57,992 bases of DNA from an uncultured bacterium (GTDB lineage Bacteria > UBP6 > UBA1177), in the NCBI GenBank assembly GCA_905235605.1, contig CAJOMF010000012.1, positions 1 to 57,992 on the forward strand. Reading direction: 5' to 3'. The notes under the pieces were generated by a model. It saw nothing but the letters and a program-made list of their open reading frames with translations. It had not been told where the DNA came from and did not search any database. The translations under genes and the position numbers were made by a program. Shown piece after piece: positions 21,518-28,444 of the stretch. The first letter of the stretch is position 1. Every line of letters starts with the position of its first letter.

Positions 21518-23092
21518 ATGGGAATTTATATCAATGCGGGTAACGAGAATTTAAGAATGGCTTTAAATTCGGAGATTTTTGTTGACAAGTCTTTGGTACT
21601 GCAAAAACTTTGCTCTCTATTGAATTCCACCCAGAGATTTATCTGTGTTTCGCGTCCGCGCCGATTCGGTAAGACAATGGTCCGTGATTTAATGGTTGCC
21701 TATTTTTCAAAAGGGTGTGATTCGAGAGAAATGTTCTCGGGTCTTAAAATTGCACAGGCTCCGTGCTTCGAAGATAATCTCAATAAATTCAATGTAATAG
21801 CGGTTGACTTGGGTGCGATTTACAATGCTGCGGCAAACAGAAACGATACAATTAAAACTCTTGAAAATTGGCTTAGAAAAGATTTCCGGGAAGAATACTC
21901 TGAAATTGAATTTTTGGATGAAGATCCGGTTGCAAGAATGATTCAAAAAGTTTACGATTCACGCAAAACACAATTCATTATAATCATTGACGAATACGAC
22001 ACTTTTATCCGTGAACGCCAAAGTGAAGCACTTGTTGAGGAATACCGCTCTTTCTTAAATTCCATCTTTAAAAACAATGAACTTTCACCAGCGATTGCGC
22101 TCGCATATTTGACCGGAATCCTGCCGATAGAGCGCGACAAAGTGCAATCAAAACTTAATAATTTCAATGAGTCCACCATTCTCAGCCCTATTGGTTTGGA
22201 AGAGTTTTTCGGTTTTACGAAAGCTGAAGTGAAAGCTCTTTGCAAAGAATACAAAATGAAATTCAAGGATTGTGAAAACTGGTATGACGGCTACAAAATC
22301 AATAAAATCAGCATCTACAACCCGAATTCTGTTGTTAAAGCGATGCAGGAGCACGAATATGCAAATTATTGGGCAAAAACAGGGTCTTACGAGGCTGTTT
22401 CGGACTATATCAAGCTCGACTACGACGGCACAAAAACGGCTGTGGTTGAAATGCTGTCAGGCAGGGAAGTTCCTGTAAATGTTGTCGATTTTAAAAATAA
22501 ACTGGATGAAATAAAGACTAAAGACCACGTTTTAACATATCTAATACACCTAGGCTACTTGAATTACGACAAAAAGACGGGGCTTTGCCGCATTCCGAAC
22601 AAAGAAATCAAGCAGGAGTGGGAATCGGCAATAAAAGACGCAGACAATTTTTCCAAAATAGCTGAAATGATAAGAAATTCAGATAATCTTCTGTATCTTA
22701 CTCAAAACGGGGTCGCGGAAGAAGTTGCCGCTGCTCTTGACAAAGCTCACACCGAAGTTTCAAGCGTTTTGAACTATAACTTTGAATCATCTCTTCAGGC
22801 TGCGATAATCCTTGCTTATTACACAGCCAAAACAAAATACACGATCATTCAGGAACTTCCTGCAGGATACGGTTTTGCCGACATAGGTTTTATCCCGCTT
22901 GACAAAAAAGATCCTGCAATGATCATCGAACTCAAATATGATAAAAATGCGAAAGCTGCAATTTCACAGATAAAAGATAAAAAATATCCGAAAGCCTTTG
23001 AAAACTACATCGACAATCTTCTTCTTGTTGCTGTAAATTATGACAAAACTACAAAGGTACACGAATGTGTGATTGAAAAATACGGGGAATAG
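21518..23092 (+). CDS. AAA-ATPase-like protein with PD-(D/E)XK nuclease domain (DUF1703 type)
   Basis: A 524-residue protein of the large AAA-ATPase-like/DUF1703 family. It opens with the family's N-terminal FVDKSLVLQKL. A P-loop variant, SRPRRFGKTM, lies at about 45-54, and the Walker-B-like IIIIDEYD is near 151. The C-terminal nuclease-like domain has FADIGF near 452 and MIIELKY near 467, the D...ExK spacing of PD-(D/E)XK enzymes. The role of the family is unknown; members are scattered in gut bacteria and multiply like selfish or defence genes. It lies among polysaccharide genes, and the bases right after its stop are a remnant of a glycosyltransferase start. Confidence 0.82.
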   Translation: MGIYINAGNENLRMALNSEIFVDKSLVLQKLCSLLNSTQRFICVSRPRRFGKTMVRDLMVAYFSKGCDSREMFSGLKIAQAPCFEDNLNKFNVIAVDLGAIYNAAANRNDTIKTLENWLRKDFREEYSEIEFLDEDPVARMIQKVYDSRKTQFIIIIDEYDTFIRERQSEALVEEYRSFLNSIFKNNELSPAIALAYLTGILPIERDKVQSKLNNFNESTILSPIGLEEFFGFTKAEVKALCKEYKMKFKDCENWYDGYKINKISIYNPNSVVKAMQEHEYANYWAKTGSYEAVSDYIKLDYDGTKTAVVEMLSGREVPVNVVDFKNKLDEIKTKDHVLTYLIHLGYLNYDKKTGLCRIPNKEIKQEWESAIKDADNFSKIAEMIRNSDNLLYLTQNGVAEEVAAALDKAHTEVSSVLNYNFESSLQAAIILAYYTAKTKYTIIQELPAGYGFADIGFIPLDKKDPAMIIELKYDKNAKAAISQIKDKKYPKAFENYIDNLLLVAVNYDKTTKVHECVIEKYGE

Positions 23093-23096
23093 AAAA

Positions 23097-23122
23097 ATGA
23101 ACATCCTCTTCATAAATTCAGT
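23097..23122 (+). pseudogene. Remnant of a glycosyltransferase 5' end
   Basis: Twenty-six bases starting with ATG match the first codons of the intact glycosyltransferase at 27326, with two changes near the start (ATGAACATC against ATGAAACTC). The match stops abruptly where a palindromic repeat begins. A second, longer copy of the same gene start is at 26036. The spacing to the upstream stop (four bases) resembles that of the intact gene, so this is a cut-off gene rather than chance. Confidence 0.7.
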
Positions 23123-24730: not shown

Positions 24731-24824
24731 CTTTTTCTGATATAAATCACCAAATTTTAAAAAATCATGTAATTTCAATGTGTTTCACGCGCGAGATGTC
24801 TCAAATGGAGATAAGGAGTTAGGA

Positions 24825-26039
24825 TTGAAAGATATTCTGTTTTTGTGTCAGTTTTTCTATCCGGAATACAATTCTTCGGCAACATTGCCTTTTGATACTG
24901 CTAAATATCTGGCTTCCCACGGTTTTACGGTGGATGCGCTTGTGGGTTATCCGAAAGAGTACAGTGCAGATAAAAACACCAAGGTTAAAGAAACTGTTGA
25001 AGGTGTCGGCATCAGAAGATTGAAGTATCTTCAACTGAAACGCACAGGCACGATCGGTCGTTTGATCAATTATTTTTCATTTACGTTCATTGCTTTTTTA
25101 AACATTTTCCGTTTGAAAGGTTATAAGACAGTGATTGTCTATTCAAATCCGCCGGTTCTTCCGCTTGTTCCGATTATTGCAAAAAAACTGTTTGGCACGA
25201 AATTCGTATTTGTTGCTTACGATGTATATCCGGAAGTGGCCTATGCTTCTCAATCGCTTACTCCGACGAGCTTGATTAGCCGGGTTATGAATCTGATTAA
25301 CGGTATGCTTTACAAAAATGTTGATTGTGTCGTGACTCTCACTGATGAAATGAAGGATTTCCTTCTTAAAAACAGACCGGGATTAACTGCAGACCGCGTA
25401 ACTCCTATTGCAAACTGGGCGCATGAGAAGGAAAGTGCTCCTGACCATGAGGCTTACAAGCGTTTCGGATATAAGGATGATGATCAGTTTATAGTCTCAT
25501 ATTTCGGCAATATGGGAACCTGTCAGGATGTCGAAACTATGTTGGAAGCGGCTGAACTTTTGAAAGACGATGACAGAATCCGTTTTCTGTTTGTTGGACA
25601 CGGCAATAAAAAGGATGCAGTTGCTCTCAGAATGAAGGAACGCGGATTGAAAAACGTCCAACTCCTTAATTTCCTTACCGGAAAGGATTTCCAGCAGGCT
25701 GTTGCAATCAGTTCCTGCGCTATCGTCAGCCTTGAAAAAGGTCTCATCGGCACCTGTGCTCCAAGCAAATATTACAGTTATCTTCAAGGCGGTATGCCTG
25801 TTTTGACGGTAGTCGAAAAGGAAAGCTATTTGGCTAAGGAAGTCAGAGAAGAGAAGATCGGTCTCACTGTCGAGATTGGAGACGGAAAGGCCATGGCTGA
25901 TGCGATTGTTGATATGTTGGAACATCCGCAGGAATGTTCTGAAATGGGAAAACGCGCAAAGAAACTTTATTCTGAGAAATATTCGTATGAAATCGCTATG
26001 CAGAAGTATGGCGAAGTGATTGAAGGTTTGGTTAAATGA
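24825..26039 (+). CDS. Glycosyltransferase family 4 (WbuB-like)
   Basis: A 404-residue GT-B glycosyltransferase of the WbuB-like GT4 type. The N-terminal acceptor domain opens with ILFLCQFFYPEYNSSA. The C-terminal nucleotide-sugar domain contains VSYFGNMGTCQDVETMLEAA near 220 and the ExE-type region PSKYYSYLQGGMP near 318. It probably adds the first or second sugar, often FucNAc or a related sugar, to the lipid carrier, consistent with upstream capEFG. I prefer the TTG at 24825 behind AAGGAG; the longer reading has no such site. Its stop overlaps the start of a truncated glycosyltransferase (ATGA). Confidence 0.85.
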   Translation: MKDILFLCQFFYPEYNSSATLPFDTAKYLASHGFTVDALVGYPKEYSADKNTKVKETVEGVGIRRLKYLQLKRTGTIGRLINYFSFTFIAFLNIFRLKGYKTVIVYSNPPVLPLVPIIAKKLFGTKFVFVAYDVYPEVAYASQSLTPTSLISRVMNLINGMLYKNVDCVVTLTDEMKDFLLKNRPGLTADRVTPIANWAHEKESAPDHEAYKRFGYKDDDQFIVSYFGNMGTCQDVETMLEAAELLKDDDRIRFLFVGHGNKKDAVALRMKERGLKNVQLLNFLTGKDFQQAVAISSCAIVSLEKGLIGTCAPSKYYSYLQGGMPVLTVVEKESYLAKEVREEKIGLTVEIGDGKAMADAIVDMLEHPQECSEMGKRAKKLYSEKYSYEIAMQKYGEVIEGLVK

Positions 26040-26236
26040 AACTCCTCTTCATAAATTCAGTCTGCGGCATCGGCAGCACCGGTAGTATCTGCACCGATCT
26101 GGCGCAGGAATATGAAGCACAGGGGCATGAAGTGAAAATCGCTTACGGGCGTAACGCATTCGTTCCTGAAAAGTTCAGGAAATATGCGGAGATTATAGGG
26201 GAAAATAATGAGCAAAGAAATAATGAATTACGATGA
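26036..26236 (+). pseudogene. Truncated glycosyltransferase (first ~51 codons)
   Basis: Bases 26036-26187 are a copy of the first 152 bases of the intact glycosyltransferase at 27326, with 11 mismatches counted by eye. After codon 51 the similarity stops, and the frame runs 15 more codons into the start of the DUF1016 gene. The peptide (MKLLFINSVCGIGSTGSICT...) lacks any nucleotide-sugar domain and cannot be active. Together with 27326-27477 it forms a direct repeat around the DUF1016 gene. Confidence 0.9.
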
Positions 26237-27329
26237 AGATGTTAAAATCATAAAATCTGCGATTCTCGAATGCCAGCACAAAGTTGTAAGGCAGGCAAAC
26301 GGAGACCAGCTTTCCTTGTATTACGGAATAGGGCGCTATATTTCGTTCAAAACACGTAAAAACGCATGGGGAACAAATGCGATTGATACAATAAGCGACA
26401 AACTCAGGAAACAATTGCCCGGACTGCGAGGTTTTTCTGCGACAAATATGAAGTATATGCGTATTTTTTATGAGACTTGGTGCGAAACTGTAAATCGTCA
26501 GCCGTCGGCTGACGATTTGGAAAACGGAACTTCAGGCGATCTCATCCCGATAAATCTTTTGAATCAAAATTTTATTATTAATCTTGAGGAATTTACAGGC
26601 ATAAGCTTCACCCACCATGTCGAAATTTTTACAAAAGCCAAAACCTTGGAAGAACGTTTGTTCTATATTCATCAGGCATTTTTGCTGCGTTGGGATAAAT
26701 ACACGCTCAGAGATAATTTAAAAGCCGACGTTTTCCATAAACAAAGCAACCTGCCGAGCAATTTTTCTGCAACAATATCAGATTCAAGGCAAAGATTAAA
26801 GGCGATAGAGATGTTTCGCGATGAATATCTTTTGGATTTTGTAAATGTTGAAGAACTTGGTGAGCGTGACAAAGAAGATCTTGACGAAAGAATTGTTGAA
26901 AATTCAATAGTGCATAATTTAAAAAATTTCTTTATGACGTTTGGGCAGGATTTCACATTTATCGGCAATCAATACCGGATAGAATCATTAGGAAAGGAAC
27001 ATTTTATAGATTTGCTTTTTTACAACCGCGAACTCAGCTCTCTTGTAGCAGTCGAGCTGAAAAAAGGTGAATTTAAACCGTCCTATCTTGGTCAAATGAA
27101 TATTTATTTGCAACTGCTTGACGATTTCGTGAAAAAGCCGAATGAAAATCCGTCAATCGGAATAATTTTATGCCGCAGTGCGGACAAAACTTATGTCGAG
27201 TATGCAGTGCGTGATTATTCAAAGCCAATGGGTGTTGCAACATATAAGACTTTCTCTGATATGCCGGAAAAATTGCGAAAAGCTCTACCGAGTATTAAAG
27301 AAATTGAAAAAGAACTGGAGGCGAAATGA
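26208..27329 (+). CDS. DUF1016 (YhcG-type) PD-(D/E)XK nuclease-domain protein
   Basis: A 373-residue DUF1016/YhcG protein. The N-terminal domain contains LSLYYGIGRYISFKTRKNAWG (about 36-56) and LPGLRGFSATNMKYMRIFY (about 69-87). The C-terminal nuclease domain has FIDLLFY near 266 and VAVELKKGEF near 278, the D...ExK signature. The family is thought to be restriction-like or recombination-associated; its target is not established. The gene sits exactly between two copies of a glycosyltransferase start, and its stop overlaps the intact copy (ATGA). This layout suggests it arrived together with a second copy of the target gene's 5' end. Confidence 0.88.
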   Translation: MSKEIMNYDEDVKIIKSAILECQHKVVRQANGDQLSLYYGIGRYISFKTRKNAWGTNAIDTISDKLRKQLPGLRGFSATNMKYMRIFYETWCETVNRQPSADDLENGTSGDLIPINLLNQNFIINLEEFTGISFTHHVEIFTKAKTLEERLFYIHQAFLLRWDKYTLRDNLKADVFHKQSNLPSNFSATISDSRQRLKAIEMFRDEYLLDFVNVEELGERDKEDLDERIVENSIVHNLKNFFMTFGQDFTFIGNQYRIESLGKEHFIDLLFYNRELSSLVAVELKKGEFKPSYLGQMNIYLQLLDDFVKKPNENPSIGIILCRSADKTYVEYAVRDYSKPMGVATYKTFSDMPEKLRKALPSIKEIEKELEAK

Positions 27330-28444
27330 AACTCCTCTTCATAAATTCAGTCTGCGGCATCGGCAGCACCGGTCGCATCTGCACTGACTTGGCGCAGGAA
27401 TATGAAGCACAGGGGCATGAAGTGAAAATCGCTTACGGCCGCAACGGTTATGTTCCTGAAAAGTTCAGGAAATATGCTGTCCGCATAGGCACTGATTTTG
27501 ATGTTAAGGTTCACGGAGTTATCTCTCGTCTTTTCGATGCGCACGGTCTCGGCTCGAAATCGGCGACAAAAAAATTCCTCGAATGGGCTGAAGAATACAA
27601 ACCTGATCTGCTTTGGCTGCACAACATTCACGGATATTATATCAACTATGAACTTCTGTTTGAGTGGATAAAAAAACATCCTGAAATGGAAGTAAAATGG
27701 ACGCTCCATGACTGCTGGACATTCACCGGTCACTGCTCCCACTTCACTTTTGCAGGATGCGGCAAATGGAAAACCCGGTGTGAAAACTGTCCGCAGGAAA
27801 AGTCTTATCCAACAAGTTTCTTTCTTGACCGCTCGAAAGAGAATTTTGACAGAAAAAAACAGGCATTCACCGGTGCCAAAAACATGACTTTGATAACTCC
27901 GTCAAAGTGGCTTGCGGACTTGGTGAAGCAGAGCTTTTTGAAGGAATATCCCGTTGAAGTGCGCTACAACACAATCGACACAAATATTTTTAAGCCGACT
28001 CCAAGTGATTTCCGTGAAAGATACGGATTGCAGAACAAAAAAATCGTGCTCGGTGTCGCTGGTGTGTGGAATGATAGAAAGGGTTTGAACGATTTTCTGT
28101 GGCTCTCTGAAAAACTGGATGATTCTTACCAGATCGTTCTTGTCGGTTTGTCTCAGAAACAACTTGATACTCTGCCGAAAAACATAATCGGCATAAGACG
28201 GACAAATAGCCCCAAAGAACTTGCTGAAATTTACACTGCCGCAGATGTTTTTGCGAACCCGACTTATGAAGATAATTATCCCACAACAAATCTTGAGGCA
28301 CAGGCTTGCGGAACACCGACAATAACTTATAGAACAGGCGGCAGCCCTGAAAGTGTGCCGACAGAAAATGTTGCGGAATATGGAAACAAAGAGCATGTGC
28401 TTGAGAAAATTAAGGTGGTCTTAGAAAAAAATAATGGAAAATAA
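27326..28444 (+). CDS. Glycosyltransferase family 4
   Basis: A 372-residue GT4 enzyme. The N-terminal domain has INSVCGIGSTGRICTDLAQE, typical of transferases that act on lipid-linked glycans. The family signature WTLHDCWTFTGHCSHF lies near 131, with a Cys-rich segment behind it (CGKWKTRCENC). The C-terminal domain has VGLSQKQLD near 271 and FANPTYEDNYPTTNLEAQACG near 306-326. The start overlaps the DUF1016 stop by four bases, and the end overlaps wzy by 11. Donor and acceptor sugar cannot be told. Two broken copies of its 5' end lie upstream. Confidence 0.88.
   Translation: MKLLFINSVCGIGSTGRICTDLAQEYEAQGHEVKIAYGRNGYVPEKFRKYAVRIGTDFDVKVHGVISRLFDAHGLGSKSATKKFLEWAEEYKPDLLWLHNIHGYYINYELLFEWIKKHPEMEVKWTLHDCWTFTGHCSHFTFAGCGKWKTRCENCPQEKSYPTSFFLDRSKENFDRKKQAFTGAKNMTLITPSKWLADLVKQSFLKEYPVEVRYNTIDTNIFKPTPSDFRERYGLQNKKIVLGVAGVWNDRKGLNDFLWLSEKLDDSYQIVLVGLSQKQLDTLPKNIIGIRRTNSPKELAEIYTAADVFANPTYEDNYPTTNLEAQACGTPTITYRTGGSPESVPTENVAEYGNKEHVLEKIKVVLEKNNGK

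What the first reader, a model, noticed from the sequence alone, without database searches (positions are those of the whole stretch)
26036..27477. DUF1016 nuclease gene between direct repeats of a glycosyltransferase start
152 bases at 26036-26187 and 27326-27477 are direct repeats with 11 mismatches by eye. The DUF1016 gene fills the space, and its stop overlaps the intact gene's ATG in the same way as the upstream glycosyltransferase stop overlaps the broken copy. The arrangement keeps the interrupted gene working, as if the nuclease gene travelled together with a replacement 5' end. It may point to homing-like or recombination-driven spread of DUF1016 genes.
Basis: partly seen in the sequence, partly recalled or inferred. 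Interest (0 to 1): 0.65.

Follow-up and report, generated by a model that had tools for sequence, protein, structure and literature searches.

The report
Nuclease gene spreading with duplicated gene ends
A predicted DNA-cutting gene sits between a broken and an intact copy of the start of a sugar-transferase gene, and the same kind of scar recurs around many other genes of this nuclease family, which indicates that they arrive on foreign DNA carrying a spare end of the neighbouring gene.

Summary
In detail: 154 bases at 26034-26187 recur at 27324-27477 (93% identical) around an intact DUF1016/YhcG nuclease gene. The broken copy is also fused, at a 12-base near-match, to the 3' tail of a third glycosyltransferase ('GT-X'), which in relative G012 stands directly upstream of the same gene. 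The two copies are different alleles: 7 of 11 differences segregate among relatives. I read the repeat as a scar of one-sided homologous recombination: a donor fragment GT-X/DUF1016/GT-Y paired within GT-Y and joined illegitimately on the other side. This is general. In the genus 31 of 67 DUF1016 genes lie between direct repeats, against 16 of 563 other ORFs; 7 of 25 in other genera of the phylum; 2 of 21 in another phylum. Repeated pieces include starts of rpe and a GIY-YIG gene and ends of a Fic-like gene, hsdS and a tRNA-nucleotidyltransferase-like gene. One locus has relatives with a single-copy empty site. Differences between copies fall mostly at third codon positions (31 of 47). Recombination-driven spread with a replacement gene end is well supported; homing (self-driven spread) is not shown. 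Nearest precedents: restriction-modification genes inserted 'with long target duplication' and homology-facilitated illegitimate recombination.

The parts
24780..26039 (+). upstream glycosyltransferase; its TGA stop overlaps the ATG of the broken copy
26034..26187 (+). left copy of the repeat: broken start of glycosyltransferase GT-Y (G003-like allele)
26176..26187 (+). joint: CAGGAAATATGC in GT-Y against CAGAAAATATGC in GT-X (12 bases, one mismatch)
26188..26207 (+). scrap of the 3' tail of a different glycosyltransferase, GT-X (reads ..KYAEIIGE), directly before the DUF1016 ATG
26036..26236 (+). 66-codon fused remnant ORF (GT-Y start + GT-X tail)
26208..27329 (+). DUF1016/YhcG-family PD-(D/E)XK nuclease gene, 373 aa, intact, VELKKG motif present; PADLOC candidate PDC-S02
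27324..27477 (+). right copy of the repeat: start of intact GT-Y (shares G012/G001 bases where the left copy shares G003 bases)
27326..28444 (+). intact GT-Y; 85-88% identical relatives without DUF1016 in front in G001, G003, G012
23097..23122 (+). second, shorter remnant of a GT-Y-type start, 4 bases after the stop of the AAA-ATPase/PDDEXK_9 ORF 21518-23092

Best explanation
The repeat is the scar of a one-sided homologous recombination that brought the DUF1016 gene in. Shown: a broken and an intact GT-Y start that are different alleles; a scrap of GT-X between the broken copy and DUF1016; GT-X directly upstream of GT-Y in relative G012; a 12-base near-match at the left joint. Inferred: a donor fragment GT-X tail / DUF1016 / GT-Y start entered a cell whose locus read upstream-GT / GT-Y; it paired and crossed over inside GT-Y on the right, and on the left was joined illegitimately at the short match inside the resident GT-Y. 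The stretch between the two joints is therefore present twice, the resident end is broken, and the donor end with the DUF1016 stop/ATG overlap keeps GT-Y translated. The same process explains the repeats around many other DUF1016 genes, mirrored when the shared gene is upstream (its 3' end is then duplicated). It is tolerated because the neighbour keeps one complete end.
For: Alleles: 7 of 11 window differences, 4 of 6 in L162 and 5 of 9 in L161 have both bases among relatives, none has neither. Pooled over 8 coding repeats, 31 of 47 differences are third-codon-position (P 5e-6), so the copies evolved as working genes before they were joined. Foreign scraps at joints: GT-X tail here, a GT-Y scrap in L130, what reads as an hsdR start between DUF1016 and the duplicated hsdS end in L316 (hsdR named by eye). 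Empty site with one copy for L162 in G001, G002 and G008. Frequency: DUF1016 31/67 against 13/345 and 3/218 (Fisher 4e-18, 2e-19), 16/24 protein clusters against 15/502, cross-locus pairs 6/201; other genera 7/25 against 1/94; other phylum 2/21 against 0/84 cross pairs. DUF1016 unit of G003 98% identical to one in G012 in other surroundings.
Against: The exact donor (GT-X/DUF1016/GT-Y) and the exact empty recipient (upstream GT/GT-Y) of the window were not found. Ten of the 31 in-genus cases use dispersed intergenic repeats, which may act by ordinary recombination between repeats. No clear donor/recipient switch is visible along GT-Y. About half of the DUF1016 genes have no detectable flanking repeat. 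Most genomes are fragmented assemblies. The DNA entry route was not examined.
Confidence: 0.72

Rival explanations
1. True long target duplication: the gene inserts at a staggered or replicated break and copies the resident sequence in place, so both copies start identical.
For: Same look as the restriction-modification insertions of Helicobacter pylori; L162 has clean single-copy empty sites; two repeats are 100% identical (L164, L169).
Against: Copies are different alleles with shared polymorphisms and third-position differences, and donor neighbour scraps lie at the joints.
Confidence: 0.13
2. Homing: the DUF1016 nuclease cuts the empty locus and the repair copies the gene and its flank in; the duplication comes from sloppy repair.
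For: It is a predicted PD-(D/E)XK nuclease with the E-x-K motif; it is enriched at such scars; flanks are co-transferred.
Against: Sites differ from gene to gene; ORF6N (6/9), RhuM (4/7), KilA-N and Bro-N genes show the same flanks; no cleavage site known.
Confidence: 0.1
3. A repeat-bounded gene cassette system (integron-like): genes move as units between homologous linkers.
For: Arrays such as repeat/DUF1016/repeat/ORF6N/repeat in L144 and L133; 10 of 31 repeats belong to dispersed families.
Against: No integron integrase over cut-off, only XerC/D-type matches; the window and several other repeats are coding gene ends, not a common linker.
Confidence: 0.05

Closest known systems
Insertion of restriction-modification genes with long and variable target duplication (Nobusato 2000, Furuta 2010; cited in PMC1643837, PMC3031569)
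   Same: A short accessory nuclease-type gene between long direct repeats of resident sequence of variable length; empty allele with one copy.
   Different: Solitary DUF1016 gene, no methyltransferase needed; here the copies are shown to be different alleles and foreign scraps are found at joints.
Homology-facilitated illegitimate recombination (natural transformation; E. coli conjugation, PMC3240628)
   Same: One end by homology, the other by a short match; leaves insertions with duplicated or lost resident sequence.
   Different: Known from experiments with marker DNA; here inferred from scars around one gene family.
Orphan immunity gene arrays of Vibrio cholerae T6SS loci (PMC5361080)
   Same: One conserved arm anchors, the other end joins illegitimately, old gene remnants stay beside the newcomer.
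   Different: There effector/immunity modules displace genes at fixed loci; here single nuclease genes enter many unrelated loci and the neighbour stays whole.
YhcG/DUF1016 family (PF17761+PF06250; COG4804; PADLOC PDC-S02)
   Same: Domain architecture and nuclease motif; known on plasmids, ICEs and next to type I restriction genes (PMC1189080, PMC4316617).
   Different: Duplicated neighbour-gene ends around its members were not mentioned in the papers read (full-text search for DUF1016 gave 10 papers; passages of three papers on the family read).

Membership tests
DUF1016/YhcG nucleases | DUF1016_N followed by YhcG_C over full length | tested here: met
   E 1.8e-26 and 1.2e-50
DUF1016/YhcG nucleases | E-x-K nuclease motif in the YhcG_C domain | tested here: met
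   VAVELKKG at residue 280; activity not testable
Insertion with long target duplication | long direct repeats of resident sequence around the insert | tested here: met
Insertion with long target duplication | related genome with the empty site and one copy | tested here: inconclusive
   met for L162; for the window only GT-Y without DUF1016 in other surroundings
Homology-facilitated illegitimate recombination | one joint at a short near-match between unrelated sequences | tested here: met
   CAGRAAATATGC joint of GT-Y and GT-X
Homology-facilitated illegitimate recombination | other side by homology with a donor allele | tested here: inconclusive
   two different alleles present; no switch point seen in GT-Y
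Homing endonuclease gene | precise insertion into a fixed site, no duplication | tested here: not met
   duplication present; sites vary
Homing endonuclease gene | cleaves the empty allele | not testable with these tools
   needs an assay
Integron cassette | integron integrase in the genome | tested here: not met
   TIGR02249: no match over cut-off in 15 genomes
Transposon/IS | fixed short target duplication | tested here: not met
   direct repeats of 29 to 215 bases; terminal inverted repeats not systematically sought

The most novel reading that the evidence does not exclude
DUF1016 proteins, and perhaps the ORF6N/RhuM/KilA-N/Bro-N genes that show the same flanks, actively promote capture of the DNA that encodes them, by cutting recipient DNA or handling recombination joints: a loose form of homing that uses any shared gene end as anchor and leaves the neighbour intact.
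Probability: 0.18. Interest if true: 0.88.

Novelty: new variant of a known kind. Interest (0 to 1): 0.6.

Why it matters
It extends 'insertion with long target duplication', described mainly for restriction-modification genes, to a widespread nuclease family of unknown role (a candidate phage-defence gene), and gives sequence evidence on how such duplications arise: the second copy is a donor allele, not a copy of the resident site. That makes an old question (transposition-like event or one-sided recombination) testable in any genus rich in these genes, and offers a simple signature for finding recently captured defence-type genes.

Tried and rejected
Integron: no integrase. Solved structure of a relative by sequence: none. 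Donor/recipient switch inside GT-Y: no clear mosaic. Close relatives of this DUF1016 in named genomes: only 32-45% identical, so no strain pair with and without the gene. A third phylum gave too few DUF1016 genes to test (one intact gene, no repeat). Ten plasmid DUF1016 genes and E. coli yhcG: no repeat. Dispersed repeats as the sole cause: rejected, cross-locus pairs match in 6 of 201 against 31 of 67 at the same locus. Generic accessory genes as the cause: capsule-locus genes show 2 of 113, but this control is imperfect.

Full report
What is there. The window holds a polysaccharide locus. Between an upstream glycosyltransferase (24780-26039) and glycosyltransferase 'GT-Y' (27326-28444) lies a DUF1016/YhcG nuclease gene (26208-27329). 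The first 152 bases of GT-Y are also present before the nuclease gene, with 11 mismatches. The broken copy continues for 20 bases into the tail of a different glycosyltransferase, 'GT-X', before the nuclease ATG. GT-X was recognised in relative G012, where it lies directly upstream of GT-Y (L046 6978-8156 and 8157-9275). GT-Y and GT-X meet at CAG(G/A)AAATATGC.

Relatives. Three members of the genus have GT-Y at 85-88% identity and no DUF1016 in front of it. Against them the two copies are different alleles: the broken one follows G003 at 9 of 11 differing sites; the intact one often follows G012 or G001; at 7 sites both bases occur among the relatives. A single duplication that decayed in place would not give this. 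Seven of 11 differences are at third codon positions.

Is it general? The genus carries many DUF1016 genes (12 in this genome). I took about 70 loci without regard to repeats, plus 20 arbitrary control regions, and asked for a direct repeat (blastn E at most 1e-5) between the 500 bases upstream and downstream of each ORF. DUF1016: 31 of 67. Other ORFs: 13 of 345 in the same regions, 3 of 218 in control regions (Fisher 4e-18 and 2e-19). At E 1e-20 it is 17 of 67 against 3 of 563. Orthologous loci inflate counts, but by protein clusters it is 16 of 24 against 15 of 502. Cross-locus pairing gives 6 of 201, and 21 of the 31 repeats are local rather than dispersed. ORF6N (6/9), RhuM (4/7) and AlbA_2 (4/15) genes behave alike, and several of the 'other' positives are Bro-N, KilA-N and DUF3800 genes.

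Other genera of the phylum: 7 of 25 against 1 of 94, the one being an ORF6N-like gene in a Lachnospiraceae record by its sequence. Another phylum: 2 of 21 tested, cross-pair null 0 of 84. Plasmids 0 of 10, E. coli yhcG none.

Anatomy of the coding cases. Start duplicated, as in the window: rpe with its upstream region (L290) and a T5orf172/GIY-YIG gene (L319). End duplicated: a Fic-like gene (L162, judged by sequence), a peptidase-like gene (L161, by eye), a tRNA-nucleotidyltransferase-like gene (L297), an outer-membrane-like gene (L300), hsdS (L316), and GT-X around an AlbA_2 gene (L130). In L162 relatives G001, G002 and G008 have one copy and no insert. Pooled differences between coding copies: 31 third, 11 first, 5 second position (P 5e-6). 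In L316 what reads as the start of hsdR lies between DUF1016 and the duplicated hsdS end, and in L130 a scrap of GT-Y lies before the AlbA_2 gene: fragments of a previous neighbourhood, as GT-X is in the window.

Mechanism. These three facts (different alleles, selection history in both copies, foreign neighbour scraps at one joint) fit integration with homology on one side and an illegitimate joint on the other. If the illegitimate joint falls inside the shared gene, the stretch between it and the insertion point is duplicated. A target duplication made in place predicts identical sister copies and no scraps. Precedents are homology-facilitated illegitimate recombination (PMC3240628, PMC2884548) and the model for immunity gene arrays in Vibrio cholerae (PMC5361080); the closest pattern is the long target duplication around restriction-modification genes (PMC1643837, PMC3031569). 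Not shown: the donor and recipient strains of this event, the DNA entry route, and any active role of the nuclease. Enrichment around DUF1016 could reflect only that such genes are gained often; capsule genes as accessory controls show 2 of 113, so frequent exchange alone does not give these scars, but a dedicated control with other solitary accessory genes is missing.

Verdict. Recombination-driven spread with a replacement gene end is well supported; homing is open.

Noticed in passing
window 23097-23122; L131 5642-5668 (G006:C33): A 26-base remnant of a GT-Y-type start directly after the stop of the AAA-ATPase/PDDEXK_9 ORF, then a dispersed intergenic sequence; a like remnant follows an unrelated small gene in G006.
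   Followed up: partly
L144 3800-6610; L133 5430-9100: Arrays of DUF1016, ORF6N and RhuM-type genes separated by homologous 70-215-base intergenic segments (terminator-plus-promoter-like), which could recombine like cassettes; family A occurs at many places in several genomes of the genus.
   Followed up: partly
L138 280-3345 (G005:C20): Three copies of a broken AlbA_2-type gene start separate an AlbA_2 gene and a DUF1016 gene.
   Followed up: partly
L169 3867-5256 and G012:C25 11831-13223: DUF1016 unit 98% identical between two species in different surroundings: a recent transfer with definable ends.
   Followed up: no
L152 5653-6742 (G002:C5): Regular 66-base tandem spacing next to genes that look like cas1/cas2: a CRISPR array beside a DUF1016 gene.
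   Followed up: no
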